This document shows, piece by piece, positions 33,802 through 64,000 of a DNA stretch of 64,000 nt. The notes beneath the pieces are model-generated. The model was not told where the DNA came from and made no database searches. It was given only the letters and a program-made list of their open reading frames with translations. Position numbers and translations under genes: made by a program. Position 1 is the stretch's first letter, and each line of letters opens with the position of its first letter. This DNA comes from Viola odorata (taxonomy: Eukaryota; Streptophyta; Magnoliopsida; Malpighiales; Violaceae): contig OY829545.1 in assembly GCA_963691705.1 (NCBI GenBank), positions 42,147,475 to 42,211,474 of the forward strand. The letters are read 5' to 3'.

Positions 33802-34202
33802 CCAAGTGATAAGATTCAATCTGTTTGTTGTAGGATTGTAGAGGATTATGATCNNNNNNNNNNNNNNNNNNNNNNNNNNNNNNNNNNNNNNNNNNNNNNN
33901 NNNNNNNNNNNNNNNNNNNNNNNNNNNNNNNNNNNNNNNNNNNNNNNNNNNNNNNNNNNNNNNNNNNNNNNNNNNNNNNNNNNNNNNNNNNNNNNNNNNN
34001 NNNNNNNNNNNNNNNNNNNNNNNNNNNNNNNNNNNNNNNNNNNNNNNNNNNNNTAAAGCGATGTGTGGGACCCCCTCGTTGATGTCGACCATTCTAGACC
34101 CGATAGCCCAAGGCTGCCAGGGCGATAGCAGCAGCTTTTTCCTCCCTCCACGGGATATAAGATGAGAATGCCCTTGTTGTTAGGGGTATTGTTATCACCA
34201 AG
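33802..34202. mobile_element. Solo-LTR-like or TRIM-like insertion with CCAAG duplication
   Basis: CCAAG at 33802-33806 and 34198-34202 flanks a block from TGATAAGATTC (33807) to GTATTGTTATCA (34197). The TG/CA ends with inverted TGATAA/TTATCA edges and a 5-bp duplication fit an LTR-type insertion. Its true length is unknown because the N gap lies inside. The left outer LTR lacks it, which defines the empty site. Confidence 0.78.
33854..34053. other. Assembly gap of 200 N
   Basis: Exactly 200 unresolved bases. Real length is unknown. Reading frames drawn through it are meaningless. Confidence 0.99.
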
Positions 34203-41390: not shown

Positions 41391-41661
41391 TTAGGGATTG
41401 TTTAATTTTTGGAAATATTTCTAAAATCTGTTTCACAACAACATTTTCCCAAATTGAAAATTTTCAAAAAAAATTCCAGTTCTCCAATTGCTAATCAGTT
41501 TTCCATAATTAACACTACAAATTTGAAAAATTCTGGAAATGCCATTTTGGAAGTTTTCCAAAAAAATAATTCCAAATCTTTTTTTTTAGCTCAACCGATC
41601 CACATTGTTAACATAAAAAAGAAACAATGTTATGTTAGACATGTCTACCCTCATAATTTAT

Positions 41662-42655
41662 AAATATGCTAAATCTATTCACGTTAAAGATCAAGTATAA
41701 ATATAATAATTCCGTTTATGAAAATAAAATACATATAAAATTTTCTTGAATTATTTGTTCATGACGTGAATACTACAAACTCGAAAATGTATTCACCTAA
41801 GAACTATTTTTTCTTTTTTTTTGAAAAACGAAAACTACTACTTTTTCTAAATCAATTTGTTTTGAATTAAGAAAACAATGTTAGTTTTTTTAATTTTTGA
41901 AGATTAATAAACTAAATAGTAGCCCATTTTAATTTTGTTAAAGATCAAATATAAATATGCTAAATCTATTCACGTTAAAGATCAAGTATAAATATAATAA
42001 TTCCGTTCATGAAAATAAAATACATATAAAATTTTCTTGAATTATTTGTTCATGACGTGAATACTACAAACTTGAAATCGTATTCACCTAAGAACTATTT
42101 TTTCTTTTTTTTTTGAAAAATGAAAGCTACTACTTTTGTTAAATCAATTTGTTTTGAATTAATAAAATAATGTTAGTTTTTTTAATTTTTGAAGATTAAT
42201 AAACTAAATAGTAGCCCATTTTAATTTTGTTAAAGATCAAATATAAATATGCTAAATCTATTCACGTTAAAGAACAAGTATAAATATAATAATTCTGTTC
42301 ATGAAAATAAAATACATATAAAATTTTCTTGAATTATTTGTTCATGACGTGAATACTACAAACTTGAAATCCTATTCACCTAAGAACTATTTTTTCTTTT
42401 CTTTTGAAAAACGAAAACTACTACTTTTGTTAAATCAATTTGTTTTAAATTAAAAAAACAATGTTAGTTTTTTTAATTTTTGAAGATTAATAAACTAAAT
42501 AGTAGCCCATTTTAATTTTGTTAAAGATCAAATATAAATATGCTAAATCTATTCACGTTAAAGATCAAGTATAAATATAATAATTCCGTTCATGAAAATA
42601 AAATACATATAAAATAGTCTTGAATTATTTGTTCATTACGTGAATACTACAAATA
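41662..42655. repeat. Tandem repeat of about 291 bp near the Harbinger end
   Basis: The phrase AAATATGCTAAATCTATTC occurs at 41662, 41953, 42245 and 42536, spacing 291-292 bp. Units also share GTAGCCCATTTTAATTTTG and CATGACGTGAATACTACAAA. Units differ by only a few bases. A more diverged partial unit is in the fragment at 41160-41345. Confidence 0.92.
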
Positions 42656-42701
42656 TCAACATTCAAAACATATTTAATTTAAATTGTTACTTCTTCATAT
42701 T

Positions 42702-44320
42702 CTAACATTTATTATAATTAGCCCATAATTGATTTGCAATATTTTCTCCAACCGCATTCATTAGTTGTTGTTGGGACATATCCACTTGAATACCTTCTTG
42801 CGTCACATTAGCTTCGTTCTCGTCTAAATTTTCCTGACCTTCTGTACCATATTCTGTGAATAGTTGATCAACTCTATCTTCCATTCGAATAAAGTTGTGT
42901 AGTGTATAACAAGCTAGAGGTATTTGCTTCTAACGACGAAGAGGATAATTTGGAATGGACTTTAAGATTGGTGGGACATATCAACTTGAATACCCTCTTG
43001 CGTCACATTAGCTTTGTTCTCGTCTAAATTTTGTTGACCTTCTGTACCATATTCTGTGAATAGTTGATCAGCTCTATCTTCCATTCGAATAAAGTTGTGT
43101 AGTGTACAACAAGCTAGAGGTATTTGCTTCTGATGACGAAGAGGATAATTTGGAATGGACTTTAAGATTGGAAATCTAGCTTTCAGAATGCCAAAAGCCT
43201 TTTCAATCATATTTCTCAATGACGAATACCGATAGTTAAACAATGCATATTTTCTTGTTATCCTTTTTCGTCCACGAAAATCATTTAAGTGATACCGTTC
43301 ACCACGACAAGGAGCTAAAAATCCAGAAATATTTGAATAACCAGCATCAACTGCATAATAGTAGTCTGCCAAAGATAAATAACAATCAGATATTTGTAGT
43401 AAACCATAAATGTAATAGCTAATAAATATTGTTATGAATTACAAAAATAATGTTTTACTAGTTGCGGGTACAGGAAAAGCATTATCTGGTCTAGTTAATA
43501 CATCAAGAAAGACGCGTGAATCATTAGCTATGCCTTCCCGACTAGTATACACAAAGGTAAACATCATATCATGCGAACAAACCACCATAACATTTTGAGT
43601 AACAAGTGCTTTTCTACCCCGAAAAGTTTTTTGTTTTTTGGCCGGACACCAAGCTGTGACATGAATACCATCTATAGCACCTATGCATTTCTAAAAGAGA
43701 AAAAATAACACATAGATAAGTTTAATATTCAAACATAATTATTTTTATTTAGTCATCACGAATTTATAATACACGTGCATACCTGAAAATATGGATACCA
43801 TCTAGCATTTGCTTGTATCTCTCTTTGAATGGGTCCTCTTGCAACATGTCTAATCAAATCAGTTCCTAAACGAACTAAAGCGTGTATCACACCCTTAACC
43901 CAACGTGAGACTGTCGCAGTTGAATGTTGAAATCATTTTGCCACTATCCTATAATATAGTCAATCTCATTGCCACACCCTCTTCCAAACTAACTGCACGT
44001 GAGTTCTGTAAGTTCAACCCTCTCAACCTGTCACATAAGTTCAGAAACACATGTGGCCTCATACGAAACTTGTCGTGGCATCTAATTGGATTTCCCAGTA
44101 AAACTTCAATAATATACGCTCTACCTGTGAGCATAGATGTGTGGCAAGGTATTCTATCAATGGAATTGTTTTCACTTTCCATTAATATACGGATGAACAT
44201 AGCCTCCTCAAGCTCATCGTCGTCATCATCATCAGTAGAACTATCACTACTTGAATTAATAACAGAAGTATTAGAACAATTCTGAAAATATTGGGACATT
44301 TCACCTGCATTATTAAACAA
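42702..44320 (-). pseudogene. Harbinger transposase (HARBI1-like DDE nuclease)
   Basis: Minus strand. N-terminal part 44320-43949 has an acidic run then GNPIRCHDKFRMRPHVF, LCDRLRGL and EGVAMRLTIL. A small deletion and an in-frame TGA near 43930-43950 then break the frame before FQHSTATVSRWVKGVI. Two introns with GT/AG ends are visible: 43782-43691 (92 bp) and 43458-43366 (93 bp). The exon between starts KCIGAIDGIHVTAWCP, giving the first catalytic Asp, and IANDSRVF gives the second. The last exon has VDAGYSNISGFLAPCRGERY and IEKAFGILKARF, whose Glu completes the triad. The protein would cut and join transposon ends in the nucleus. The C-terminal coding end is duplicated (42774-43170). Confidence 0.85.
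42774..43170 (-). repeat. Tandem duplication of the transposase 3' end, about 197 bp
   Basis: The segment from GGGACATATC to TGGACTTTAAGATTGG occurs at about 42775-42971 and again at 42973-43169. It covers the codons for LKSIPNYPLRHQKQIPLACC to the C-terminal tail. The outer copy has diverged and holds a stop. One ORF can end in either copy. Confidence 0.88.
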
Positions 44321-44516
44321 TTATGTTGTATTAGTTATACCAATAACAAAATTATCTAAATTGACATGTTAATAATAAAATTAATTGACAATAATACTTA
44401 ACATAAATGTCATAGAATTGTACCAACATACATAACAACCAAGTCATAAATATTTTAAAACAACCTCCAAAGAAAGCTCATAAAACAAGTTTACAGGATT
44501 TTAAAACAAGCCCTCA

Positions 44517-45214
44517 TCATTCTAAAGCCCTCAACCAGGACTTCCTCCTCACAATGGATATCTTTATGAACACTTTCCTCCAATGAGATTCTTTGAACTG
44601 TACAAGTGCATTGTTATAAGAGGCCTCCGAAACATCATCTAAACTCTCTAACGCATCCATGCACACATGAACAGAGTATGTATCTCGCGATGGGCTTCTA
44701 ACTTTAGACTGCTCTCCTCTACACTTCTTTGTTTTTTCTATAAAATAATCAGCCTTCGCACTAGCAGATGATGCCATAGCCTCCATATAAGGGTCCCACT
44801 TCTTAGAAACTCCTTTCTTACAATGCCTACTACCTGCATCATTCTCCGCAGCACGTTTTTCTTAGAAACTTGTAAGGAAACATAACATACCATGAAAAAC
44901 ATTTGCCACACAGCTTCAGGTGCATACACAATGTTTAAACTTGATTGGTAGGTGACTCCTGTATGGTCTAACAAATCTGAAAATTGGTGATGTTTTTGTC
45001 GCAGTCGATTGTATTTGCCTAACAACTTGACTGGTCCAAATCGTTCACCAGAAGCTAAGTATAATTCGTTATCCATGTCTTGGCAATACGTAGATTTAAA
45101 ACTAGGAGTACAATTTTGATCTACCTTAACTCTCTCGTACAATATTTCTAAAAATTTCAATTTAGTTCCATCGGACCATTTACCATCATCTTCTCCGTCA
45201 TTTCTTCTTCTCAT
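44517..45214 (-). pseudogene. MYB/SANT-like DNA-binding partner of the Harbinger transposase
   Basis: Minus strand from 45214: an acidic start, then WSDGTKLKFLEILYERVKVD, TYCQDMDNELYL, GPVKLLGKYNRLRQKHHQFS and LLDHTGVTY, which is the Myb/SANT-like domain (Myb_DNA-bind_3 type). Near 44860 the frame changes, by a short intron or a one-base shift. The other frame continues with CKKGVSKKWDPYMEAMASSA to LRALE at 44520, the usual C-terminal part of these proteins. In Harbinger elements this protein imports the nuclease to the nucleus and binds the ends. It is close to and on the same strand as the nuclease gene. Confidence 0.8.
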
Positions 45215-45450
45215 CTAAAAATCCTCAAAATTTCAAAAGCACTCAAATGACCCATATGAAAAATTTAAAGCAAATCAACTAACAAAGTAGAACATTTTGA
45301 TATGGTTATACATATCATACCACAAATATCTATTTAAGTTTTTTTTAGGGACATTATAGTATAGAGTTGAGAAATTAAAGTAGATTATTCTTATTATTAT
45401 TATATTAAATAAAGTAATTAAATTGATATTGCTATTATAATTGTCGTTGG

Positions 45451-46894
45451 GATGTCAATGATACGCTGCAATGGAATGGAAAGTCAGTCCTATATTTTGA
45501 CAAAATGAAAAATTAAAGAAATACAATGAGAAGTGAGAAAAACTGTACGGGAGATGAACATGGGTTGGCGTATAATACTCTATTCGAGTACAAATATAAT
45601 TATCGTAAAAAATAATAGAACCAACCAAGTAGAACACAGAGGAAAATTCAGGGCACAAAGCGAGCAGGTGTACGAGCAAATATCAATACGAACACACTGT
45701 GAATAGTAACACATGAGGGCAATTTTGGGATTTTAAAATAACGAACAACAAATGACGTCAAAATAGCAAAACGAACCCAGATAACTGACTGTAATGATGA
45801 GGCGAGAAGAACCCAGGTTGCGGAGAGGTCAGAGGTGGCCGAAGTGGGCTACACGCGCCGGCGCGTGGAGGAGGCCGACGAAGACGTTGGCTGCGCGTCG
45901 CCTGTCAGAATGTCGCGCTTCCACTTGCTCCCAACTCGACTCGTCCTTGCGCTCTTTCCTGTGCCGGCGGCGAGAATAGCAGACGCTTGGAAGTGGTCGA
46001 ATAGAGAAAACAGAAAAAATTGGATTTGGTTAAGGGTTTAGGAAGAAAGTGGATATGAATTGGAAGAAAGTGGACTAGTTGTTTATTAGTTGTAAATAAT
46101 AATTGAACTTGTAATAGTTGTTGTCAAAAGTTGATGCCATCCAGTTGAAATGCAAAGAATAGATATTATATTATAAATGCAAAGATGAGTTGTTTACTAG
46201 TTGTAAATAATTGTACTCGTTCCTGACCGTTCTGAAAAGGATTCACATTCAGTCTTTGTTGCGAGACTGAGCAATGCAATAATTATTTTGTCACCATTAT
46301 GTATGCAATAATTCAATTGCTCTGTTCTTTCATGACAATAGTGAGCAATGCAGTAATTATTTTGTCATCATTATGTATGCAATAATTCAATTGCTCTGCC
46401 CTTTCAATTGCTCTGCTCTTTCATAACTCAATTATTTGATATTAAGAGTGAGAATAAATTAAGGAGTGAGCGAGTCTTATGTGTATCTATTAATTTTATT
46501 TTTTTTAAACGAGAAATTATTAAATATATTCATTACATATAAGTGTAACTTTAATATGAGCTCATTTAATTGATTTTTTAAAATTAAAAGTGAATTCATA
46601 TTTATTAATTTGCAAAATCAAAATGAGAAAAGTGACCGAAATGAGAAATTATTAAATATATTCGTTACATATAAGTGTAACTTCAATATGAGCTCATTTA
46701 ATTGATATCTTGTTATTAAAAGTGAATTCATATTTATTAATTTGCAAAATCAAAATGAGAAAAGTGACCGAACATAAAACTACTGTTCTATGTAATAATT
46801 TGTCAAGCTCCTTAACTTCATACTTATTTTCTTAATAAAAAACCTGAAGGGAAAAGGTTATGACTTAGTCAAATCATAATTAATTAAGCCATTA
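45451..46894. repeat. Direct duplication copy A flanking the pararetrovirus
   Basis: From GATGTCAATGATACGCTGCA to AATTAAGCCATTA, this 1444-bp stretch recurs at 55288-56713. Copy A continues leftward into the MYB gene flank; its right edge meets viral DNA. By hand count the first 620 bp have about 25 substitutions and a 2-bp indel against copy B, and copy A carries an extra run of about 18 bp near 46400. Small frames inside (45794-45979, 45835-46041) are not supported as genes. It also contains internal direct repeats (46510-46650 and 46650-46760). Confidence 0.93.
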
Positions 46895-46997
46895 ATGAAT
46901 CCTGATCTATACATACCTCAAAATGACGGAACTTATCTCCGAAGACGATCCGGTTCAGATATGGTAGCTCTCTTTCTGGAGGGGGTAAGGGTAAGGA
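46894..46997 (+). repeat. Left terminal redundancy of the viral insert
   Basis: Matches 55173-55287 with about two substitutions and a 13-bp loss (GTAG then CTCTC, where the right copy has extra bases around 55247). It shows the insert overlaps itself. From 46998 to 47221 follows the intergenic leader before the movement protein, with no ORF; the reading frame of the last viral ORF would stop at 47035-47037 in a circular molecule. Confidence 0.88.
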
Positions 46998-47221
46998 GGT
47001 TTTGACTCTTCCTAACTCTCACCACAGGAGATTTTAGGTAACATTCGGCGTTGGTCAGCCGTTAAATCCGTTGGTTTAGTCGTAAAGCCCAGTGAGGTAG
47101 GTGGTCCCAGTGGTGGTCCCGACAAATTTACCTAAAAACTACTATAGTAAGAGGAAAAAGAAGAAAATAAACAATTTTACCTTTGTCACCTAAAGAAAGA
47201 TAGTTATTAATCTTTGATATC

Positions 47222-48268
47222 ATGGAAAGATTCGGTAATATCTTTGGTAATACTAGTCAGAATAATCAAGAAGAAATAAATGATGACTTAGAAGATTATA
47301 ACAGACAAGAGTTGCATATAGCAAAAATAGAACAACATCTAAAAAATTGGACTATCCCAAAAGAAAGCATAAAGAATATATACGAAATTGGATCTTTTAG
47401 ATTATTTCATGATTATGTGATTGAAACTACAGAAAGAACAATCCCAATAAATTCCAAACAAAAAACAGTTCAGAGAATGGAAAAAAGACAGATTGAAAAA
47501 TTCAGAAAGAAATATAGATTTATGCATATTGGATTAATTCAGATAGCAGCTAAACCACTTTACAGACTAGGTATGGATTCACCAATTCTCATGTGTTTAA
47601 GAGATGCAAGATTTAAAAGATTTGATGACTCTTTATTAGCAATATTTCAGACGAATTTAACTAGAGGACCAGTTTACCTAAACTGTTATCCAAATTTCAC
47701 GGTTTCATTAACAGATCCAAATATACTAAAAGCTTTAACACTCAATCTAAATGTTCTAGATAATATGCTTGAAGGATCAAAAGGAATTGCAATAATATAC
47801 AGAGTTTATTATAAAGTTATGTCAACAAATATAAATCCAAAAGCCTTAAGACATTCCCCTAAAGACGAATCGTTTTTGATTGAAGCCAATACCGAACATG
47901 CAATGATCCAGACGCCAAAATTATTAAAATGGGATCAGGTAACCTTTCCAGATGAATGGATTCTATCTGGAATTAATGAATCACAATCCATAGTACCCAG
48001 AACCCAACTTGCAAGAGTAGAAGAAGATGACAATGGAAATATTAGATTAATATTTGAACCACACAGAAGAAGTATAAATATAACTGATTTTCAACCCTCA
48101 GAAACTGCTAATATTATTAACTCTAGAGGAACAGCAAGTAGTCGTAAACTATGTAGAAGCCAATCAAACTCCGTTTTAACAGGAATAAATTTAGCAGGAG
48201 TTGATTTTGATCGAACAATACCTAGACCAATTTATACAGATCAAAATAGTTTTCAGACTTGTGAATAA
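47222..48268 (+). CDS. Viral movement protein (30K superfamily)
   Basis: Intact 348-codon frame. Residues about 115-250 show the caulimovirid movement-protein pattern: SPILMCLRDARFKRFDDSLL, TNLTRGPVYLNCYPNF, VSLTDPNI, IAIIYRVYYKVMSTN, then a W-x7-P-x2-W type segment (KWDQVTFPDEWIL). Proteins of this superfamily modify plasmodesmata so the virus passes between cells. The ATG at 47222 is the first in the frame and follows a 220-bp AT-rich leader. The C-terminal 90 residues are polar and unassigned. It stops 36 bp before the coat ORF, a compact arrangement usual for these viruses. Confidence 0.87.
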   Translation: MERFGNIFGNTSQNNQEEINDDLEDYNRQELHIAKIEQHLKNWTIPKESIKNIYEIGSFRLFHDYVIETTERTIPINSKQKTVQRMEKRQIEKFRKKYRFMHIGLIQIAAKPLYRLGMDSPILMCLRDARFKRFDDSLLAIFQTNLTRGPVYLNCYPNFTVSLTDPNILKALTLNLNVLDNMLEGSKGIAIIYRVYYKVMSTNINPKALRHSPKDESFLIEANTEHAMIQTPKLLKWDQVTFPDEWILSGINESQSIVPRTQLARVEEDDNGNIRLIFEPHRRSINITDFQPSETANIINSRGTASSRKLCRSQSNSVLTGINLAGVDFDRTIPRPIYTDQNSFQTCE

Positions 48269-48304
48269 GAACCCGTAAGGACACCGTCACCTACAAAAAG
48301 TGAC

Positions 48305-50560
48305 ATGAGATATACAAATCAGATTAATATGATCACAAAAAAATATGAAATCGACAAAGAAAGATTAAGAAAAGAATTTGATCATCCTTCTAATGATAAT
48401 ATAAGAACTAATTTCTTTAATTATTATACAAAAGAACAAAAAGACAGTATAAGAGAACAGTTCTATACATATTTAAATGAAGTAAAGATACATGTACCTT
48501 TCTTTACTTGGTTCAAAAGACATAAAGAACTATTAGATACTAACAATATAAATGTTATAAAAACCCTAGTTCAAACTTGGAAAACCGCCACAAACGATGA
48601 TGTCAAGGCAGTATATCCACCGTTCGAAGAAATCAAGATAAAACACCGTAGTTATGATATTTCAGCATCACCCTTAAAAGATGTGAAAGAAGAAAACAGA
48701 GATATTAAGTTGAAGGATATAAAAAATATACAATCCCAGAATAATTATACAAATATCTTACTAAATACTATGGCACAACAACTTAATACGATAGAAGAAA
48801 ATACTCCCCCTAAAGTTCATTATACAGGATATACATACGTAGGAGAAGGAAGTAAGACTCCAGTAGAAAAACCCTTAAAGATAAGTAATCCGTTAATCAA
48901 ACCCAATACCATGCCAGGATTTAAAGAAAACTTTAAGCCCTTAAGGGAAGATGTACTTTTACAAAAAATTAGTCAAGAATTAGATAAGATAAGCACGAAA
49001 GCAAAGAATCAAATTTCAGTCTTAACCAAAGAAAAGTTAGAAACAATATCAGATCAATTCAAGGAACTAGAAATAAATAGAATAAAAGGAACAAATTACC
49101 AAAGACCGAATATTAAACATTTTTATCCAAGACCCTCTTTTCCCGATATGCAATCAGAAAACAAAAGTACTAGACAACAGAATAAATATGATGGTTTGAG
49201 TATAGATGAATGGAATTTAGATGGACAAAGTAAACATGAAATCATGAGTATGTTACTAGCCATGCTAATGGCAGCTACAACGCATAGAACAAGAAGTAAC
49301 ACTGACAAACAAGTAGCATATATATTAATGGCCGAATTTTCTGGAATGCTTAAAGGATGGTGGGATAATTATCTCACTCCAGCAGAAAAATTAGCCATAA
49401 TGAACGCTACCAGAATGGAAGAAAATGAAGAAGTAGAAGATGCTACAAATGTTTTAATATTTTCTATTTTAAAACATTTTATCGGAAAACCTGAACAAAT
49501 TCAAGAAGAAACAACAGAAATACTAATGAATTTAACATGTCCTAAACTACAAGATTTTTCATGGTATAAAGACATGTTTTTATCTAAAGTATTCTTAAAA
49601 GACGACTGTAGTCTTCCTTTTTGGAAAGAAAAATTTATACCAGGACTTCCCAGGTTATTTGCAGAAAAGGTTAAAACTAAGATAAAAGAAGCCAATCAAG
49701 GAATAATACCCTACGAAGATTTGACATATGGAGAACTAATAGCCCATATAAATACGGTAGGATTATCCCTCTGTACAGACTTGAAATTAAAAGCTAAACT
49801 GAAAAGTGATAAGCTGTTAGGCAGAAAAGAATTGGGATCTTTCTGCTCTCAATATGGCTACGAAACCATTAGAGCCCCATCGAGAAGTTATAAAAAACAA
49901 AGTAAGCAATATAGGAAGCCGTATAAACCTAAATATACGGATAAACACAAAGAAAAGCCTTTTAAACCATACAAAAAGCCATACCACAAGAAAAAATATA
50001 ATAGTTATAAAGGAAGGAGAAGAGCAAATACTGGTCAACCCACTTACTATAAATGCAGGCAGGTAGGTCATTACCAAAAAGAATGTAAAATGAAAGGAAA
50101 AATACAAGCTTTAGAATGTGAAGAAGAGTTTAAAGAAGAACTCATACAACTATTAAATGACACTGAAATCGATGAAGAAATTATAAGTAGCAATAATGAA
50201 GTAATATACGAAATACAAGAAAATACTTCTGAAGAAGAGATAAACTCAGAAGAAGAAGAAGAAGAAGATAACATATGTGCTTGCTCTTATAAGCAAATCA
50301 ATGTTATTACTAAAGAAACATACCTATTGATGGAATTAATTGGTAAGGTCAATGATGCAGACACACAAAGAGAATATTTAGAAAAACTTCAGGATGTAAT
50401 TAATAGTGATAAAAAGGCAAAAGCTATACGACCTTATACTATGAAAGATGTGATAAGCAGATTTTCAAAGCAAGAATCGGCAGTAACAATTCAAGATTTA
50501 AAAGAAGAAATTAGAAAAATCAAAGCTGAAATAAGAGCATTGCAAACAGAAAATATCTAA
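48305..50560 (+). CDS. Viral coat protein with zinc-knuckle-like motif
   Basis: Intact 751-codon frame. The N-terminal third is polar; the middle (about residues 270-510) has GLSIDEWNLDGQSKHEI, GMLKGWWDNYLTPAEKL, DATNVLIFSILKHFIG and LPRLFAEKVK, the capsid pattern of caulimovirids. Then come a Lys/Tyr-rich basic run (about 525-580), a knuckle reading TYYKCRQVGHYQKEC, and acidic tail segments (EEEEEED). The canonical C-x2-C-x4-H-x4-C knuckle should have Cys where the first Tyr is. The second viral copy also has Tyr there. The protein would form the capsid and bind pregenomic RNA. Final residues (about 720-750) form a coiled-coil-like helix. Confidence 0.82.
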   Translation: MRYTNQINMITKKYEIDKERLRKEFDHPSNDNIRTNFFNYYTKEQKDSIREQFYTYLNEVKIHVPFFTWFKRHKELLDTNNINVIKTLVQTWKTATNDDVKAVYPPFEEIKIKHRSYDISASPLKDVKEENRDIKLKDIKNIQSQNNYTNILLNTMAQQLNTIEENTPPKVHYTGYTYVGEGSKTPVEKPLKISNPLIKPNTMPGFKENFKPLREDVLLQKISQELDKISTKAKNQISVLTKEKLETISDQFKELEINRIKGTNYQRPNIKHFYPRPSFPDMQSENKSTRQQNKYDGLSIDEWNLDGQSKHEIMSMLLAMLMAATTHRTRSNTDKQVAYILMAEFSGMLKGWWDNYLTPAEKLAIMNATRMEENEEVEDATNVLIFSILKHFIGKPEQIQEETTEILMNLTCPKLQDFSWYKDMFLSKVFLKDDCSLPFWKEKFIPGLPRLFAEKVKTKIKEANQGIIPYEDLTYGELIAHINTVGLSLCTDLKLKAKLKSDKLLGRKELGSFCSQYGYETIRAPSRSYKKQSKQYRKPYKPKYTDKHKEKPFKPYKKPYHKKKYNSYKGRRRANTGQPTYYKCRQVGHYQKECKMKGKIQALECEEEFKEELIQLLNDTEIDEEIISSNNEVIYEIQENTSEEEINSEEEEEEDNICACSYKQINVITKETYLLMELIGKVNDADTQREYLEKLQDVINSDKKAKAIRPYTMKDVISRFSKQESAVTIQDLKEEIRKIKAEIRALQTENI

Positions 50561-50572
50561 CTAAATATAAGA

Positions 50573-51168
50573 ATGAATATGATAGAGAATAACGACACCG
50601 ATGAAAATGTAGAAGAAAGTCGAGAGAAAGAAGTTGATTTAAATCAAGAAATTAAAAATGAGGCTTTAGGAATAGTTGATGAAGAACACTACTTAAACGT
50701 AATATCTAGAGTAGAATTTCAAAAATGGCTTGTTAATATAGAGTTAAAATTAGATAATAATTTTCATATTAAAATAGTAGCCCTAGTAGACTCTGGTGCT
50801 GACCAGAACTGTATACAAGAAGGGTTAATACCAACCTAGTACTATGAAAAAACCAAAGAACGTTTATACGCAGCAAATTGGGAAAAATTAGACATCAAGT
50901 ATAAACTGTCAAAAGCATACATCTGCAAAGAAGGATTCTGTTTTAAACAATCCTTCATATTAGCTAAAGACCTAGGACAGAAGGTAATATTAGGAACACT
51001 CTTTTTAACACAGATTTGCCCATTCAGAGTAGAATATGATGGAATCTGGACTAAAACCAAAGGAACAGAAATCTATTTTAAGTTTATAGAAAAACCTAGA
51101 CGAAAATATCTAAATGTAATAAAAGATTACTCTATAACACAGAATATCATGCTTATACAAAAAAGAAG
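50573..51168 (+). pseudogene. Viral aspartic protease region, interrupted
   Basis: The frame opens at 50573, 12 bp after the coat ORF, and has the active-site motif ALVDSGADQNCI near 50780-50812. A TAG at 50837-50839 interrupts it; the same frame then stays open until a stop at about 51191. The next segment (51171-51395) lies in another frame, so a frameshift lies in about 51130-51190. The protease would release the coat and polymerase from precursors. Confidence 0.8.
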
Positions 51169-51170
51169 AC

Positions 51171-52744
51171 ATGCATTTTCTTACCAGAGAAATAAACTAT
51201 AAAAGGATAGAAGAAGAAATTCAAACACCCTCTAATCAGAAAAGGGTTAAAGAATTTCAAGAAAGATTCGAAAAGGAAGCTTGTGCAGAAGTTCCAAATG
51301 CATTTTGGAATAGAAAGAAATATGTGATAGATTTACCATATGAAAAGAATTTTAATGAGAAAATATACCCACTAGAGCTAGACCCATTCAGATGAATAAA
51401 GAATTAATGGACTATTGTAAAGAAGAAATACAATCCTTATTAAACAAGAAATTAATAAGACCCAGTAAATCTCCATGGTCGTGTGCAGCCTTTTATGTAC
51501 AGAATCATGCTGAGCTTGAAAGAGGAGCGCCTAGACTTGTGATAAATTACAAACCTTTAAACAAAGCCCTTAGATGGATTAGGTATCCTATACCTAATAA
51601 AAGAGATCTAATAAAAAGATTACATGGAGCAACAATATTCTCCAAGTTTGACATGAAATCTGGATTTTGGCAAATCCAAATTAAAGAAGAAGATAGATAT
51701 AAGACAACATTTACGGTCCCATTAGGACATTACGAATGGAATGTAATGCCTTTTGGCTTAAAAAATGCGCCCTCAGAGTTTCAAAAAATGATGAATGACA
51801 TTTTAAACCCATACACCAAATTTACTATAGAATACATTGATGATGTGTTAGTTTTCTCAAAGTCAGTAATTGAGCACTTCCATCATCTTAACAAAATTTT
51901 AAAAATATTAAGGGAAAATGTACTTGTAGTATCAGCATCAAAGCTGAAACTATGTCAGACTAATATACAGTTTTTAGGATTCAACATTCATCAAGGTATG
52001 TTTAGTCCTATAAGTAGATCGATAGAATTTGCTAGTAAATTCTTAGACGAAATAAAAGACAAAACTCAACTGCAAAGATTTCTTGGATGTTTAAATTATG
52101 TTTCAGACTTTATAAAAGACCTTAGATCAACTTGTTCAATTTTATATGCAAGATTAAAGAAGACTCCGACTGAGTGGACAGAAGAACACACTGCAGTAGT
52201 AAGACTTATCAAAGAAAAGGTTAAAAACCTTCCATGCTTAGGTATTCCAAATCCTTTAGCAAAATTAATAGTAGAGACAAACGCATCAGACATAGGATAC
52301 GGAGGAATACTAAAACAAGAAATTGAAGGCAAAGAACAGTTAATTAGATACTATTCAGGATTGTGGATAGAATCTCAAAAGAATTATTCAACTATAAAGA
52401 AGGAAATTTTAGCCATTGTTTTATGCATCAACAAATTTCAAGATGATGTTTTTAACAAAAACTTTCTTTTACGAATTGATTGTCAAAGTGCGAAATTTGT
52501 TTTAGAAAAGGATGTTAAAAATCTTGTTGCAAAACAGATTTTTGCCAGATGGCAAGCTTTACTTTCAAATTTTGATTTTGAAATACAATACATCTCAGGA
52601 AAAGACAACTCTTTACCAGACTTTCTATCCAGAGAATTTCTACAGGGTAAGAAAAATGACGACCAAGGTGGATTCAAAGAAGAAGACAAAAGCCTCCTAC
52701 GCAATGACAATATCAGGCATACCAGACTCACCAAACAGATTTGA
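51171..52744 (+). pseudogene. Viral reverse transcriptase and RNase H
   Basis: Segment 51171-51395 carries the linker; the frame shifts back at about 51392 and then runs open to 52744. RT motifs are IRPSKSPWSCAAFYVQN, RLVINYKPLNKAL, FSKFDMKSGFWQIQI, MPFGLKNAPSEFQ and YIDD at 51833-51844. RNase H follows with VETNASDIGYGGIL, KKEILAIVLCI, RIDCQSAKFVL and LPDFLSRE. The first RNase H acid, normally Asp in ETDAS, is Asn here (codon 52280-52282), which should impair RNA cleavage. The RT core itself is intact from 51392. No integrase domain is present, as in all Caulimoviridae. Confidence 0.9.
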
Positions 52745-53930
52745 CAATTTAAGACCACAAACACCAAGATCACAGACACTAGCCTCAAAGACATTAGACC
52801 CAAACCTATTTCTACAAGGAATTACAGGCCCAAGAACTCCTTCTAGACTCATACCAGCCCTACAAGTCCAACCACCTAAATCACCAGCTTCAATAACCCA
52901 AAGATCAACCATATTAGGCAATATACCAAGACCACAAAACCAGACATACCAGACAAAAGCCCAAGACAAATCAGGCCCAATACTCAAGCCTTTTGCCAAG
53001 AATATCGGATACATTGAACCAGAATATGGATCAGATTTAAGATCCATCACCTCAAACATGTTTCCAAAAGACTTTCACTACATCCCAACAGACTTACAAA
53101 AAACCAGAAACTTCTATGAATTCATACTAGTGGACACAGACTCAGTTGAGATTTCTCACGAGACTACCGAAGCAAGACCAGATAGATACTCATACTCGAA
53201 GTGCAGAATTCTTAGAGTCTTGACACCAACAGATTGGAAGATGAACCCATACACACGAAGAATGTTTTCACAACCTTTCATCCCTAAAGGTTTTGATTAC
53301 TATGACTACCAGATGACATGGCATCATGCATTTCTATACTCGACAGGAGGACACTCGTGGTTCTTCCATTTTAACAGAAATATTTCAGCCAACTTTCCCA
53401 TATGGTTCCACAGATGGTGGCATCATCTTGGTGCACACGAAATATGCTTTCCAAACCCAATTCTAGAAGGATATGGAGCCTTTGTTCAGAAGTATCCAGA
53501 TTTATACCTACCCAAGACGATGAGTTTCACCCTCATGTTTCATATTCCGTGGATTATATATTGGGAATATGAAATAGCAGACAAAACAGAGCATGAACAA
53601 CATCCAATACTTATCAGACGATTCAAAGTAAAATGGTGGAAAAGATTTCCACAAGAACAGGCCTCGAGGTTTGCAGTCCTAAAGACATTGTCAGAATCCA
53701 CCATTGATAATCCTCCACCCAAAGGACAATCAAGGTTCCAATCAGACCCAGCACAAGCAGAGTCATCGGCAAAAGCAACTCGACAAAAGATGAAATAAGA
53801 ACTCTTAGAAAAACTATCCCATTTCTCAGACGATGAAGACGGAGGAGAGTCATATACACAAGCTAACTCAGACCCAGACTATGATAACGACATGATGGCA
53901 GAGCTCTATCCAGAGCTTGGAAGAAGATAA
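52656..53930 (+). pseudogene. Tryptophan-rich viral protein of unknown role, with one stop before the tail
   Basis: The frame is open upstream to 52512, but the ATG at 52656 (MTTKVDSKKK) gives a start that overlaps the RNase H end by about 90 bases. It has a Pro/Ser/Thr-rich N-terminus, then an aromatic core (about residues 140-340) with YYDYQMTWHHAFLY, HSWFFHFNRNISANFP and WFHRWWHHLG. I recall similar uncharacterised proteins accompanying caulimovirid sequences in several plant genomes; no activity is known to me. A TAA at 53796-53798 is followed in the same frame by 43 more codons, strongly acidic, ending at 53930, which suggests a recent nonsense change. It occupies the place of the inclusion/transactivator gene in caulimoviruses, but I see no proof of homology. 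Confidence 0.68.
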
Positions 53931-54391
53931 AAAAAAAAAAAAGAGGGGGGGGAAATACTGCAAACATGACTCCTTCTGCAAAAGACGAACTAAGACAAGG
54001 ACGAAAAAGAAAAAGAGACTTTTACCTTTCATTCAATACACAAAGCAGATTCACAGAGAGAAGAATATTGATTATCAGACGAAGACAAGGAGAATCAATT
54101 ATCCAAAGGATAAGGAACACGTGGCAAGCCAGACGACAACAAAGATTTAGACTACATAGACGTTTGAGGATTCCAGCTATTCAGACAAAGCAGACGTGGC
54201 AGACTTCAATAATCAAAAGAAGACAAAGAACTTTGCCAATACCAGCTGGCAAGGCACCAAGACGATCGTGGCAGACACCTTTTAGAAAGAAAAGAAAGAT
54301 TGTAAAAGAGATAAGATCCTTATCTCTTAATTTAGAGAAATGTAATCTATTTTGAATTCCGGTTTTAAGATTTTTCTAAACCTGTACTCCC
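53931..54391 (+). promoter_or_regulatory. Upstream part of the viral pregenomic promoter
   Basis: A purine-rich region before the TATA box holds three copies of a GTGGCA word: ACACGTGGCAAGCC (about 54118), AGACGTGGCAGAC (about 54192) and GATCGTGGCAGAC (about 54263). ACGT-core elements are typical activators of caulimovirid promoters (as-1/G-box type). An open frame of 129 codons, rich in Arg and Lys, spans 53966-54355; its composition follows the purine-rich DNA and I doubt it is a gene. Confidence 0.6.
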
Positions 54392-54400
54392 TATATAAGG
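54392..54400 (+). promoter_or_regulatory. TATA box of the viral pregenomic RNA
   Basis: TATATAAGG in the context CTATATAAGGGGAAG closely resembles the 35S-type TATA context. Start of transcription is expected about 30 bp later, near 54425-54435. The leader to the next ATG at 54586 is short (about 150 nt) for this family. Confidence 0.75.
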
Positions 54401-54585
54401 GGAAGAAATCCTCAGTTATGAGGCAGAATCAGAAAAAATTATCACAAAACTTTGAGAAAAGCTTTCAAACATCTTGAGCAACATCACTGTAAGTTTAAAT
54501 ACGCTTTCAGAATTTTTTACAACGCTTTTATACTTCAAAGCTTTCTTAAATGTTTTAAATTTCTGTTTTCTCATATACATGCATT

Positions 54586-55353
54586 ATGTCTATTTGGTAT
54601 AAATTAGCTACGTGTTTAGCTGTACTAAGAACTGATAGACTTTCAGATTTAGAACACCTTAGACAAGAATTAGTATCACACTTGACTTTTATGCATCAAG
54701 CTTATATTGAAGACCTTAACCCTGATAATAATGATGAAAATGATAACGTCGTTCCATTATCATCAGACAGAACTCCATTATGGAATGAAGATTTAATTAA
54801 AATAGAACTTTTAAGAAACATGGTTATAGCAACAAACAAAACTATAGATAAAGTTTATAAAACAATAAATAGAGATCAAAGAACAGTTAATACACCTTCC
54901 CCTAATCAGACATCAGTTTATAGAACTAATTATCATCAATACATCTTCAGACCAAGAGCACGAGGAGCTGCAATTAGACCTTCCTTTAATCAACCTCCTA
55001 GCTTTAGACCCATTATCTCTAGACCTTCATCTTCTCAATCTTCGAGACCTTATCCAAGACGACCTAATACAAATTATACTTCTCCAAACTCATCATCTTC
55101 TTCATACCTAAAACCAAATTCCAACATACCTGGACAGAGCTATACTGCTCATCAACTTCTTAGCCTAGAAGGAATGAATCCTGATCTATACATACCTCAA
55201 AATAACGGAACTTATCTCCGAAGACGATCCGGTTCAGATTTGGTAGCGGAGCCAAGTAGCTCTCTTTCTGGAGGGGGTAAGGGTAAGGATGTCAATGATA
55301 CGCTGCAACGGAATGGAAAGTCAGTCCTATATTTTGACAAAATGAAAAATTAA
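54586..55353 (+). CDS. Viral ORF of unknown function, fused to host DNA at its end
   Basis: The first ORF after the viral promoter. The N-terminal 100 residues are helical-looking (WYKLATCLAVLRTDRLSDLE, IELLRNMVIATNKTIDKVYK); residues 110-200 are rich in Pro, Ser, Arg and Asn. Residues up to about 234 (SLSGGGKGK, ending at 55287) are viral; the last 21 codons read through into duplication copy B and are not viral. In a circular genome the frame would instead continue in sequence seen at 46998-47037 and stop there. No known domain is recognised. Confidence 0.68.
   Translation: MSIWYKLATCLAVLRTDRLSDLEHLRQELVSHLTFMHQAYIEDLNPDNNDENDNVVPLSSDRTPLWNEDLIKIELLRNMVIATNKTIDKVYKTINRDQRTVNTPSPNQTSVYRTNYHQYIFRPRARGAAIRPSFNQPPSFRPIISRPSSSQSSRPYPRRPNTNYTSPNSSSSSYLKPNSNIPGQSYTAHQLLSLEGMNPDLYIPQNNGTYLRRRSGSDLVAEPSSSLSGGGKGKDVNDTLQRNGKSVLYFDKMKN
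55173..55287 (+). repeat. Right terminal redundancy of the viral insert
   Basis: Repeats the left viral end (46894-46997). The viral sequence stops after GGTAAGG at 55287 and Harbinger DNA (GATGTCAATG) begins. Confidence 0.88.
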
Positions 55354-56713
55354 AGAAATACAACGAGAAGTGAGAAAAATTGTACGGAAGATGAACATGG
55401 GTTGGCGTATAATACTCTATTCGAGTACAAATATAATTATCGTAAAAAATAATATAACCAACCAAGTAGAACCAGAGGAAAATTCAGGGCACAAAGCGAG
55501 CAGGTGTACGAGCAAATATCAATACGAACACACTGTGAATAGTAACATATGAGGGCAATTTTGGGATTTTAAAATAACTAACAGCAAATGACGTCAAAAT
55601 AGCAAAACGAATCCAGATAACTGACTGTAATGATGAGGCGAGAAGAACCCAGGTGGGGGAGAGGTCAGAGGTGGCCGAAGTGGGCTACACGCGCCGGCGC
55701 GTGGAGGAGGCCGGCGAAGACATTGGCTGCGCGTCGCCGGTCGGAATGTCGTGCTTCCACTTGCTCCCAACTCTACTCGTCCTTGCGCTCCTTCCTGTGC
55801 CGGCGGTGAGAATAGCAGGCGCTTGGAAGTGGTCAAATAGAGAAAACAGAAAAAATTGGATTTGGTTAAGGGTTTAGGAAGAAAGTGGATACGAATTGGA
55901 AGAAAGTGGATGAGTTGTTTATTAGTTGTAAATAATAATTGAACTTGTAACAGTTGTTGTCAAAAGTTGATGCCATCCAGTTGAAATGCAAAGAATAGAT
56001 ATTATATTATAAATGCAAAGATGAGTTGTTTACTAGTTGTAAATAATTGTACTCGTTCCTGACCGTTCTGAAAAGGATTCACATTCAGTCTTTGTTGCGA
56101 GACTGAGCAATGCAATAATTATTTTGTCACCATTATGTATGCAATAATTCAATTGCTCTGTTCTTTCATGACAGTAGTGAGCAATGCAGTAATTATTTTG
56201 TCATCATTATGTATGCAATAATTCAATTGCTCTGCTCTTTCATAACTCAATTATTTGATATTAAGAGTGAGAATAAATTAAGGAGTGAGTGAGTCCTATG
56301 TGTATCTATTAATTTTATTTTTTTTAAACGAGAAATTATTAAATATATTTGTTACATATAAGTGTAACTTTAATATGAGCTCATTTAATTGATTTTTTAA
56401 AATTACAAGTGAATTCATATTTATTAATTTGCAAAATCAAAATGAGAAAAGTGACCGAAACGAGAAAGTATTAAATATATTCGTTACATATAAGTGTAAC
56501 TTTAATATGAGCTCATTTAATTGATATCTTGTTATTAAAAGTGAATTCATATTTATTAATTTGTAAAATCAAAATGAGAAAAGTGACCGAACATAAAACT
56601 ACTGTTCTACGTAATAATTTGTCAAGCTCCTTAACTTCATACTTATTTTTTTAATAAAAAACCTGAAGGGAAAAGGTTATGACTTAGTCAAATCATAATT
56701 AATTAAGCCATTA
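55288..56713. repeat. Direct duplication copy B flanking the pararetrovirus
   Basis: 1426 bp, matching 45451-46894. After its right edge (AAGCCATTA then GTGTTCC) the sequence continues into the Harbinger right end, while copy A meets the virus at the same point. So the original locus had one copy with MYB flank on the left and GTGTTCC on the right. Confidence 0.93.
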
Positions 56714-57078
56714 GTGTTCCATGTGCCATGAAATTTCTTATAACACGGTTGGTTATTGAATTTTACTCGTATGATTTTAATTAGGAGTATTAGTTAGTTA
56801 AATATTAATTATGAAGTATTTTTATTACAATTTGTATCAATGTACATATTAATTATCAAAATTACGAGGGTAGACATGTCTAAAATAATTTATTTATTTT
56901 AGATTAACAATATGAATTTATTGAACTAGAGTAATAAAAAAAAATTTAGAAAATGTTTTCCAAATGGAAATATTTCCGAAAAAATTTCAAAATGGAAAAT
57001 TTTAGCTGTGAAACAGATTTTAAAATTAATTACAGTTTTGAAAAAATTTCAGAAAATTCTCCGTAACTAAACAACCCC
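56714..57078. other. Right terminal part of the Harbinger element
   Basis: Non-coding AT-rich sequence ending in the inverted terminal repeat. Subterminal words GGAAATATTTCC and GTGAAACAGATTTTAAAAT mirror 41408-41440. Confidence 0.75.
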
Positions 57079-57081
57079 TTA

Positions 57082-61556: not shown

Positions 61557-61699
61557 ACACAACTACGTATCACAACAACAACAACAAGATAAAGCAAAAA
61601 ATTGAATGAAAAATGAACAAAAGTAAGCGATCTAGGAGATGAAATCAATGCAACTAGATACCAAAATTGATTCAATGCAATTCAAACAAGAGAGAAAAA

Positions 61700-63260
61700 A
61701 TTCCTACTCCCCTTATTCAAACCAATTGAAATGACTAATTCTGAAATAATGAATTTCAAATTTAAAAAAGAGGATGAATATTTAGAAATGATAAATAAAA
61801 AATTAGATAAAATAAATATGAAATCCAAAGACCAAATTTCAGTTTTAACAGAAGAAATTGATGAAAAAGATATAAAAAATATCTCAGAGAAATTTCAAGA
61901 ATTAGAAATTAATAAACTAAGAAGTAAAAATTACCAAAATCCTAGAATAAAGCACTTTTATCCTAAACCAACCTTTCCTGATGTACAATCAGAAGATATG
62001 AATACTATGACTCAAGCCATGTACGATGGTCAAAGTATTATAGAATGGAATCTAGATGGACTCAAGCCATGTACGATGGTCAAAGTGAACATAATATAAT
62101 AACAATGTTAGAAAATATGATGATGGCAGCTACCGCATATAAGGCAAGAGGAAACACAGATAAATATGTTGCCTAGATAATTATTTTAGGATTTTCAGGA
62201 CAACTTAAAAGCTGGTGGGATAACTATCTAACTCTAGAAGAAAAACTAGAAATAATAAATGCAGTAAAAACAGAAAATGAAGAACCCAAAGAGGATGCTA
62301 CTAATGTATTAGTATATACTATATTAAAACATTTTATGGGAGAACCAAGTCAATTTCAAGAAAAAACAACAAAAATATTGGTTAATTTAACCTACCCAAA
62401 ACTGCAAGATTTTAGATGGTACAAATACATGTTTTTAACAAAAATATTCCTAAACTAAGATTGTAATCATTCATTCTGGAAAGAAAAAATTATCTCAAGA
62501 TTACCAAAACTATTTGCAGAAAAAGTAAAAACTAGAATTAAAAATCTTTATAGTGGAGTAATTCCTTATCCATTATTAACCTATGGTGAAATTATAGCAC
62601 AAATTAATAACGAAGGATTAGCCCTCTGTACTGATTTAAAATTAAAAGCTAAAATAAAAAATGAACTTCATCAAAGTAAAAAAGAATTAGGAACATTTTG
62701 TGCTCAATATGGATACGAAACAATAATACCCCCTTCAAGAAAATATAAAAAACAAAGAAGACCAATAAGAAAAAATTATAAAAACTCTAGCTACCCGGAA
62801 AGACCCAATAAAAACTACCAAAGAAAATATTACAAAAAGAGATTTAATAAATTTAGACCCAATAAACAAAATAAAATCCCTACCTATTTTAAATGTGGAC
62901 AGGTGGGATATTATAAAAATAACTGTAAAATGAAACAGAAAATTCAAGAACTTGAAATTGATGAAGAAATCAAAAATCAAATGATACAACTATTAAATTC
63001 TAGCACTAATGATGACATAGAAGACACTAGTAGTGAAGAGTTAGAAATCGACCCAATTCAGGATGATTCTTTGGACAGTAAAGAACAATCGGATGAAGAA
63101 GAAAAAGACTCCAATATTTGCTCTTGTGTATATAAACAAATAAACACAATTACTACAGAAAAAGAAATGTTAATTGAAATATTAGAAAAAATAGAGGATC
63201 CCGAAATACAAAGAGAATATTTAAACAAACTAAAAGACTTAATAATAAGAGAAAAAGAAA
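61700..63260 (+). pseudogene. Second pararetrovirus copy: coat protein part, decayed
   Basis: Colinear with the first copy from about 48890 to 50420: LDKINMKSKDQISVLTEE, IKHFYPKPTFPDVQSED, GQLKSWWDNYLTLEEKLEI, ATNVLVYTILKHFMG, the basic run and a knuckle reading TYFKCGQVGYYKNNC. A tandem duplication of about 50 bp near 62010-62085 shifts the frame. Stops occur at about 62174 and 62457. The knuckle has Tyr for the first Cys, as in the first copy, and Tyr for His. The N-terminal part and the movement protein are missing at the left. Divergence from the first copy is large, so it is a separate, related virus lineage or a much older integration. Confidence 0.82.
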
Positions 63261-64000
63261 CTAAAGAAATAGATACCCTATTAAAAAAAAACCTCATCAG
63301 ACCAAGTAAATCTCCATGGTCTTGTGCTGCTTTTTATGTTCAAAACTAAGCAGAAATAGAACGAGGAGCTCTAAGATTAGTAATTAACTATAAACCTTTA
63401 AATAAAGCATTACAATGGATAAGATACCCTATACCTAATAAAAGAGATTTAATTAAAAGACTAAACGGAGCAACTATATTTTCAAAATTTGATATGAAAT
63501 CAGGATTTTGGCAAATCCAAATTACTGAAAAAGACAGGTATAAAACCGCCTTCACTGTACCATTTGGTCATTATGAATGGCATGTAATGCCATTTGGACT
63601 AAAAAACGCACCCTCAGAATTTCAGAATATAATGAACGATATTTTAAATCCTTATATAAAATTCACCATTGTATATATAGATGATGTATTAGTATTCTCA
63701 AAATCTATAACAGAGCATTTTAATCATTTAAAAAAATTCTTAAAAATATTAAAAGAAAATGGATTGGTAGTCTCAGCTACCAAACTAAAGTTATGTCAAA
63801 CAAAAATCAGATTTTTAGGATTTGATATTTATCAAGAAACCATTAAACCAATAAGTAGATCAATAGAATTTACAGATAAATTCTCAGATGAGATAAAAGA
63901 TAAAAAACAATTACAACAATTCTTAGGATGCCTAAATTATGTTACAGATTTTATTAAAAACCTAAGAACCATCTGTTTGCCATTATATCAAAGACTTAGA
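63261..64000 (+). pseudogene. Second pararetrovirus copy: RT, joined to coat part by deletion, cut by window end
   Basis: At about 63255-63265 the coat-protein tail passes directly into RT (LIRPSKSPWSCAAFYVQN), skipping the protease and linker, about 1 kb in the first copy. A TAA follows at 63347-63349. RT motifs FSKFDMKSGFWQIQI, MPFGLKNAPSEFQ and YIDD (63674-63685) are kept. The frame is open from 63350 to the window end, where the thumb region (FLGCLNYVTDFIK) is reached. Confidence 0.85.

What the first reader, a model, noticed from the sequence alone, without database searches (positions are those of the whole stretch)
45451..56713. Pararetrovirus flanked by a 1.44-kb direct duplication of its target
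The virus at 46894-55287 lies between two copies of the same Harbinger DNA (45451-46894 and 55288-56713). Junction geometry is exact: left of copy A is Harbinger, right of copy A is virus, left of copy B is virus, right of copy B is Harbinger. This is what a giant target-site duplication would look like. Caulimoviruses have no integrase, and integration is thought to use host break repair. A duplication this long suggests repair synthesis over widely spaced nicks, break-induced replication, or a later tandem duplication followed by loss of one unit. The two copies differ by roughly 4 percent in the part I counted, which would date the event as LTR pairs do.
Basis: partly seen in the sequence, partly recalled or inferred. 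Interest (0 to 1): 0.9.

Follow-up and report, generated by a model that had tools for sequence, protein, structure and literature searches.

The report
Virus insertions flanked by kilobase duplications
A plant virus that has no machinery for entering chromosomes sits in this plant genome between two copies of the same 1.4-kb stretch of host DNA, and four other insertions of the same virus show the same pattern, which gives a rare look at how such viruses get into genomes.

Summary
Copies A (45450-46893) and B (55287-56712) of one Harbinger-transposon segment abut the two ends of a caulimovirid provirus (46894-55289). They differ by 37 of 1426 bases (2.6%), not about 4%. Virus-free Harbinger paralogs carry the segment once, so this is insertion plus duplication of 1.44 kb of target. 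The provirus is also terminally redundant (104/117 bp repeated at its ends).

It is not a one-off. Of 13 proviruses with both ends in hand (this one included), 5 have direct target duplications at the viral ends: 161, at least 632, 980, 1054 and 1444 bp. Mismatched flanks gave 0 of 156. At each of the five loci the target repeats and the viral end repeats have similar divergence, as one event would give. Sixteen of 18 right ends examined stop between 2 nt before and 48 nt past the end of one G-rich purine tract; the lower bound partly reflects how loci were picked.

Best reading: linear viral DNA, opened where two replication gaps lie close together, was joined by host repair between offset host ends that both carried the target segment. 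The duplications are shown; the viral gaps and the origin of the offset ends are inferred. I saw no report of such long duplications for caulimovirids in the papers searched.

The parts
41391..41393 (.). TTA target-site duplication of the Harbinger element, left copy; element about 41394-57078, right copy TTA about 57079-57081
   Evidence: Sequence read; inverted-repeat arms
42962..43690 (-). Harbinger transposase pieces (DDE_Tnp_4, Plant_tran)
   Evidence: Pfam
44738..45214 (-). Harbinger Myb/SANT-like protein ORF
   Evidence: Pfam PF12776
45450..46893 (+). Target duplication copy A (Harbinger DNA), directly left of the virus
   Evidence: single copy in virus-free paralogs
46894..46997 (+). 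Left copy R of the viral terminal redundancy (104 bp; lacks a short stretch present in the right copy)
46978..46999 (+). G-rich purine tract (polypurine-tract-like), the G-richest of three such tracts found in the provirus; 16 of 18 examined right ends stop between 2 nt before and 48 nt past its GGTAAGGGTAAGG part
   Evidence: L057 and L058 end earlier
47204..48268 (+). Movement protein ORF
   Evidence: Pfam MP PF01107, E 1.1e-20
48269..50560 (+). Coat-protein ORF with DUF7588, DUF7746, Caulimovir_coat_dom and a weak CCHC zinc-knuckle match (below its curated cut-off)
   Evidence: Pfam
50561..52744 (+). Aspartic protease (weak match), reverse transcriptase and RNase H region, broken into several frames
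   Evidence: Pfam RVT_1, RT_RNaseH, RVP below cut-off, ORF lists, stop counts; PDB 8r0s at E 5e-98
52506..53798 (+). ORF of unknown function, no Pfam match
54559..55289 (+). ORF that runs through the right copy of the redundancy; on the viral circle it would continue through the left copy
55173..55289 (+). Right copy R' of the viral terminal redundancy (117 bp)
55241..55253 (+). Primer-binding-site-like stretch (10 of the 12 bases of the initiator-tRNA-Met complement; that motif is recalled), inside the redundancy, 17 nt before the purine tract (55270)
55287..56712 (+). Target duplication copy B (Harbinger DNA), directly right of the virus; GGA at the joint is shared by virus and host
56713..57078 (+). 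Right arm of the Harbinger element with terminal inverted repeat

Best explanation
This is an endogenous caulimovirid provirus flanked by a 1.44-kb target duplication made when it integrated. Proposed course: (1) the open-circular viral DNA has a minus-strand gap at the primer binding site and a plus-strand gap at a purine tract, only about 50 nt apart; (2) it falls open there, and its 3' ends, which overrun the gaps, are filled in, leaving a linear molecule with roughly 100-200 bp repeated at both ends; (3) host end-joining (microhomology or filler DNA) links the two ends of this molecule to two host ends that both contain the target segment A; (4) so A ends up on both sides. The two host ends are offset by 0.16-1.4 kb; most likely they are two broken chromatid ends (for example forks running off opposed nicks), less likely one break with a very long overhang that was filled in. 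Shown here: the duplication, the empty paralogs, the viral terminal redundancy, the clustering of viral right ends in the loci examined, the junction sequences, the similar divergence, the recurrence. Inferred: the positions of the gaps, the linear intermediate, the repair pathway and the source of the offset ends.
For: Duplication and exact junctions. Virus-free paralogs with one A. A and B are 97.4% alike; over the whole alignment no one of 12 paralogs exceeds 89% to either, and their differences fall evenly (15 A-derived, 15 B-derived, 7 unresolved). Recurrence: L024/L049 980 bp, L066/L065 1054 bp, L054/L055 161 bp, L025/L051 at least 632 bp. Control 0 of 156 mismatched pairs against 6 of 13 own pairs, one of them a satellite. 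Target versus viral-end divergence per locus: 2.6/1.9, 3.0/1.9, 3.8/4.1, 0/1.8, 3.0/3.9%. End repeats at the window provirus and at 12 of 12 other usable pairs, the shortest 31 bp in L056. Right ends at the G-rich tract in 16 of 18 examined. Junctions: 3-bp GGA and 1-bp A in the window; by eye, short filler at L024 and L066 that resembles nearby viral or host sequence. No integrase domain in the viral ORF pieces scanned. Gaps with overhangs at the primer site and polypurine stretches are described for cauliflower mosaic virus (PMC4462095, passages); a cohesive-end linear form with terminal redundancy has been proposed for hepatitis B virus integration (PMC8398950, passages).
Against: 7 of 13 loci gave no direct flank match, and three of those (L072, L074, L076) still gave no abutting one with 3.2 kb more right flank: duplication is common, not universal. 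L025 has viral filler between virus and target repeat, and only 632 bp of its repeat align. Locally the paralogs come closer to A than the whole-alignment figure shows: 92% over 908 bp (L017) and 96% over the last 255 bp (L009; A and B differ there by 6 of 255). The primer-site match is weak (two mismatches in 12; about 0.3 such sites expected by chance in 8.4 kb, my estimate). The right-end clustering is partly built in: 16 of the 18 were picked because their match reaches the end of the 3' query, which lies at the tract; what is not built in is that none of these 16 runs on more than 48 nt. Of 43 longer rows, 25 reach the query's end (16 examined) and 18 stop earlier (2 examined). Other copies do run through the region (L039, L040, L043, L044; C6:42518633-42519403 meets a 5' match). 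Viral left ends are looser. No orthologous empty site, no reads and no free viral DNA were available.
Confidence: 0.56

Rival explanations
1. Template-switch replication: a stalled or broken fork copied the viral DNA and then resumed on the host template upstream of where it had left (MMBIR/BIR), so A was copied twice.
For: Short microhomologies, and fillers and inverted viral snippets at several joints, fit template switching. Fork-return distances of hundreds of bp to kb would fit the lengths seen.
Against: Copying round a circular template should give random viral ends, yet 16 of 18 examined right ends lie at one tract (partly a matter of selection). The sequence outcome is otherwise identical, so it cannot be excluded.
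Confidence: 0.3
2. A single host break with a very long staggered end: opposed nicks 0.16-1.4 kb apart, overhangs filled in before joining to the virus (patch-mediated break model).
For: Proposed for tandem duplications in rice, where some exceed 1 kb and the longest is 4.9 kb (PMC7971508, passages).
Against: In the same study tandem duplications fall from 70% of insertions to about 5% by 200 bp, while four of the five here are 632 bp or longer.
Confidence: 0.2
3. A chimeric circle of virus plus captured Harbinger DNA integrated by one homologous crossover within A.
For: Would give the same order of parts; no call speaks for it specifically.
Against: Needs a separate chimeric circle for each of five different targets. 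None of the fetched Harbinger paralogs (L003-L018) carries a match to the viral end pieces.
Confidence: 0.03
4. A was tandemly duplicated first and the virus later landed exactly between the copies, or the assembly falsely duplicated a haplotype.
For: The window alone could not exclude it; tandem duplications are common in rice.
Against: Abutment at several loci, similar divergence of viral end repeats and target repeats, 0 of 156 mismatched pairs, and no N run in 45450-56713.
Confidence: 0.05
5. The 1.44-kb repeats are terminal repeats of the viral element itself, or of an LTR retrotransposon, not target DNA.
For: Long direct repeats around a reverse-transcriptase element look like LTRs.
Against: A lies inside virus-free Harbinger copies, and the flanking repeats of the five loci do not match one another.
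Confidence: 0.01

Closest known systems
Endogenous caulimovirids (endogenous pararetroviruses)
   Same: Plant pararetrovirus genes with no integrase match, many copies, nested and rearranged; mechanism of capture stated to be speculative, with NHEJ or microhomology filler at breaks as one of two widely held hypotheses (PMC10377300, passages; PMC4241990, passages)
   Different: Long direct target duplications at 5 of 13 loci and right ends at one tract in the loci examined; the passages seen describe TA-repeat sites and tandem arrays, not this
Hepatitis B virus integration from (cohesive-end) linear DNA
   Same: Reverse-transcribing virus without integrase; linear DNA with terminal redundancy formed at the strand gaps; NHEJ/MMEJ (PMC8398950, passages)
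   Different: A plant virus in the germ line; near-full-length inserts; target duplications of 0.16-1.4 kb where the HBV passages mention 12-bp repeats or small deletions
Patch-mediated tandem duplications and T-DNA-type filler insertions in plants
   Same: Break repair that duplicates target DNA (PMC7971508, passages; a 158-bp target repeat around a T-DNA is recalled, no call)
   Different: There mostly under 200 bp; here four of five are 632 bp or longer and recur with one virus
LTR retrotransposon integration
   Same: Terminally redundant reverse-transcribed DNA between direct target repeats; the same window holds a young LTR pair (20296-23787 / 29170-32661, 99.8%) with a 5-bp GACAT duplication
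   Different: No integrase match, target repeats about 30 to 300 times longer

Membership tests
Caulimoviridae (endogenous) | Reverse transcriptase/RNase H of the caulimovirid type | tested here: met
   RVT_1, RT_RNaseH; best PDB match 8r0s 'Enzymatic polyprotein' E 5.1e-98 ahead of a Ty3-type chain at 3.8e-63 (that 8r0s is a caulimovirus protein is recalled)
Caulimoviridae (endogenous) | Movement protein and caulimovirus coat domain | tested here: met
   PF01107 E 1.1e-20; PF22909 E 1.2e-11
Caulimoviridae (endogenous) | No integrase | tested here: met
   No integrase match at E 0.01 in the nine viral ORF pieces scanned
Caulimoviridae (endogenous) | Circular genome with tRNA-Met primer site | tested here: inconclusive
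   End repeats and an ORF that would run across them imply a circle; primer-site match has two mismatches
Caulimoviridae (endogenous) | Genus assignment by RT phylogeny | not tested
PIF/Harbinger transposon (the target) | DDE_Tnp_4 transposase and Myb-like protein | tested here: met
PIF/Harbinger transposon (the target) | Terminal inverted repeats with 3-bp TTA/TAA duplication | tested here: met
   TTA at both ends, inverted-repeat arms (71% over 79 nt); the 3-bp rule is recalled
Target-site duplication made at integration | Direct repeats abut both ends of the insert | tested here: met
Target-site duplication made at integration | Single copy at the empty site | tested here: inconclusive
   Single in virus-free paralogs; an orthologous empty site could not be tested
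Target-site duplication made at integration | Fixed short length set by an integrase or endonuclease | tested here: not met
   161, at least 632, 980, 1054, 1444 bp
LTR retrotransposon | Integrase and 4-6 bp target duplication | tested here: not met

The most novel reading that the evidence does not exclude
This caulimovirid lineage integrates by a repeatable, semi-defined route: a linear DNA with ends set by its two neighbouring replication gaps is inserted at offset host breaks hundreds of bases to over a kilobase apart, so that giant target duplications are a regular hallmark of its proviruses and not repair accidents.
Probability: 0.25. Interest if true: 0.88.

Novelty: new variant of a known kind. 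Interest (0 to 1): 0.73.

Why it matters
How viruses without integrase enter plant germ lines is called speculative in a 2023 review (PMC10377300, passages). A set of datable proviruses with exact junctions, end repeats and kilobase target duplications makes that question testable by counting: duplication against deletion, length distribution, microhomology. Each such locus also carries a datable repeat pair that works like an LTR pair but consists of host DNA.

Tried and rejected
Rejected: that A and B are viral or LTR repeats (paralogs carry A without virus). That the viral left end is a sharp fixed terminus: a few copies start at the same base, but others run on upstream or are rearranged, and some loci are segmental copies of one another. 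That L072 has a duplication: its flank repeat is 82% identical against 98% for its viral end repeat, and does not abut the virus. That L048 and L035 are further cases: their flanks look like tandem arrays. L023/L050 has inverted flanks in a 1.29-kb tandem array and is left unexplained. A perfect tRNA-Met primer site was not found.

Led nowhere: searches for virus-free copies of the L024 and L066 targets did not complete. Six fetched pairs were unusable because one viral end was not found in the stretch: L060/59, L062/61, L064/63, L068/67, L070/69, L036/L080; none gave a flank match except a 60-bp direct one in L064/63 that was not resolved. With the window, 19 pairs were attempted and 13 usable. 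The nine loci chosen from 3' matches alone were taken from the top of that list, passing over places with several matches close together. A first script for the right-end offsets set its anchor wrongly and was redone. The genus of the virus and the host species were not determined. Papers were seen as passages only; other titles as search listings. Searches behind 'saw no report': all in the open PMC library, which lacks most subscription papers.
Full report
WHAT IS THERE. Copy A (45450-46893) and copy B (55287-56712) are direct repeats: 1390 of 1445 columns identical, 37 substitutions in 1426 aligned bases, two gap events. Between them lies a caulimovirid provirus, 46894-55289, with movement protein, coat protein, reverse transcriptase and RNase H matches, a weak protease match, and no integrase match in the nine viral ORF pieces scanned. 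The reverse-transcriptase region is broken into several frames; the other four ORFs checked are open. Left of A and right of B is one Harbinger element, bounded by TTA at 41391-41393 and just after about 57078, with transposase and Myb-like ORFs on the minus strand. Virus and host share GGA at the virus/B joint and a single A at the A/virus joint.

A SECOND, NESTED REPEAT. The virus repeats its own ends: 46894-46997 equals 55173-55289, with 2 substitutions in 104 and one indel. The order is therefore Harbinger, A, R, viral body, R', B, Harbinger. An ORF that begins before R' would run on through R if the ends were closed, so the source was most likely a circular genome, taken a little more than once round.

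A IS TARGET DNA. The genome search with A gave 61 matches, with 40 of 549 candidates scored. I fetched ten further stretches. Thirteen distinct places (L003-L018, three of them held twice) carry Harbinger sequence and gave no match over 60 bp to either viral end piece. In 12 of 12 printed cases A's right edge runs on into the Harbinger right arm; L012 has a small deletion there. In L012 and L013 the left edge is present too. A and B are 97.4% alike, and no one of 12 paralogs exceeds 89% to either over the whole alignment; locally the paralogs come closer (92% over 908 bp in L017, 96% over the last 255 bp in L009, where A and B differ by 6 of 255). The 37 differences split 15 A-derived, 15 B-derived, 7 unresolved by majority of the paralogs. 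At recalled plant rates of 0.7-1.3e-8 per site per year, 2.6% is about 1-2 million years.

IT RECURS. The virus is multicopy: a 5' piece gave 43 match rows and a 3' piece 49, with 40 of 325 and 40 of 339 candidates scored. I paired ends of other proviruses and fetched their flanks. Of 19 attempted pairs, the window included, 13 have both viral ends in hand. Five have direct target repeats at the viral ends: the window (1444 bp); L024/L049 on C6 (980 bp); L066/L065 on C7 (1054 bp); L054/L055 on C6 (161 bp, in an older inverted caulimovirid copy); L025/L051 on C2 (at least 632 bp, with viral filler at both joints). Of the other eight, L048 and L035 lie in what look like tandem arrays; L023 has inverted flanks; L045, L056, L072, L074 and L076 show no abutting duplication. 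As a control, the left flank of each locus was compared with the right flank of every other: 0 of 156 gave a direct match of at least 100 bp at 90%; own pairs gave 6 of 13, one of them the L048 satellite.

SIMILAR AGE. Divergence of the target repeat and of the viral end repeat, locus by locus: window 2.6 and 1.9%; L024 3.0 and 1.9%; L066 3.8 and 4.1%; L054 0 and 1.8%; L025 3.0 and 3.9%. The viral end repeats are short (97-209 sites), so each of their figures rests on 2 to 6 substitutions; within that small number the two agree. This speaks for one event.

VIRAL ENDS. The 12 other usable pairs all have an end repeat, from 31 bp (L056) to 209 bp. Of 18 right ends examined, 16 stop between 2 bases before and 48 bases after the end of GGTAAGGGTAAGG, part of one G-rich purine tract (window 46978-46999); L057 and L058 stop about 63 bases earlier. 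The tract is the G-richest of three found in the provirus. In R' it begins 17 nt after the best match to the tRNA-Met primer site, which has two mismatches in 12. In cauliflower mosaic virus the minus-strand gap lies at the primer site and the plus-strand gaps at polypurine stretches, with overhangs (PMC4462095, passages). The clustering has a caveat. Those 16 were picked because their match reaches the end of the 3' query, which lies at the tract, so the lower bound is built in; the informative part is that none of the 16 runs on further than 48 nt. Of 43 longer rows, 25 reach the query's end (16 examined) and 18 stop earlier (2 examined). Other copies run through the region, as tandem or rearranged copies would (L039, L040, L043, L044; C6:42518633-42519403). 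Left ends are looser.

HOW IT MOST LIKELY WORKS. End repeats and right ends at the tract speak for a linear molecule opened at the gap region, with 3' overruns filled in, as has been proposed for the cohesive-end linear form of hepatitis B virus (PMC8398950, passages). The joints have microhomology of a few bases or filler, some of it resembling nearby sequence by eye, which looks like end-joining and not integrase work; the young LTR retrotransposon in the same window has a 5-bp duplication, GACAT. For the duplication, both host ends must have contained A. I favour joining of two offset broken ends, for example chromatids whose forks ran off opposed nicks; template-switch replication and very long overhang fill-in remain possible. 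In rice, tandem duplications drop to about 5% of insertions above 200 bp, although some exceed 1 kb (PMC7971508, passages), so the lengths here are unusual for simple fill-in.

WHAT IS KNOWN. A 2023 review calls the mechanism of caulimovirid capture speculative and names break repair and borrowed retrotransposon machinery as the two widely held hypotheses (PMC10377300, passages). The florendovirus paper proposes filler DNA at TA-rich breaks (PMC4241990, passages). In the listings of nine searches of the open library and the passages read I saw no report of kilobase target duplications around such proviruses; most subscription papers are not in that library.

VERDICT. Not shown: an orthologous empty site, read support, the strand gaps, the repair pathway, the virus genus, the host species. 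After re-checking, the odds of the full mechanism were lowered from 0.6 to 0.56 because part of the right-end clustering follows from how loci were picked.

Noticed in passing
window 20296-23787 and 29170-32661: A very young LTR retrotransposon: 3.49-kb direct terminal repeats 99.8% identical, TG..CA ends, 5-bp GACAT target duplication.
   Followed up: partly
window 61671-63967: A second, older and internally deleted caulimovirid copy of a different lineage (about 74-78% DNA identity to the main provirus), coat-protein region joined to the reverse-transcriptase region; runs on towards the window end.
   Followed up: partly
window 33854-34053: A 200-base N run, the only assembly gap in the window; it lies outside the finding.
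   Followed up: no
window 41659-42653: A tandem array of about 291-bp units inside the left arm of the Harbinger element, present in some paralogs too.
   Followed up: no
window 18644-20295 and 24133-25240: Dense minisatellite-like tandem repeats beside and inside the LTR retrotransposon.
   Followed up: no
L023 / L050 (C3:42.30 Mb): A provirus of the same family sits between inverted copies of a 1.29-kb tandemly repeated host unit; L022 at 42.72 Mb shares its flank, probably as a segmental copy.
   Followed up: partly
window 53930-53960; L053: A second purine tract (A-run followed by a G-run) in the viral intergenic region; a viral fragment beside the provirus L035/L053 has one edge at 53942, possibly another gap-linked breakpoint.
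   Followed up: no
L036 (C2:24.48 Mb): Another provirus of the family has a Harbinger relative in its left flank (about 81-83% identity), with an older viral fragment between.
   Followed up: partly
L051, L061, L073: Short inverted viral snippets at the right joint of the provirus, as if the viral end had folded back before joining.
   Followed up: no
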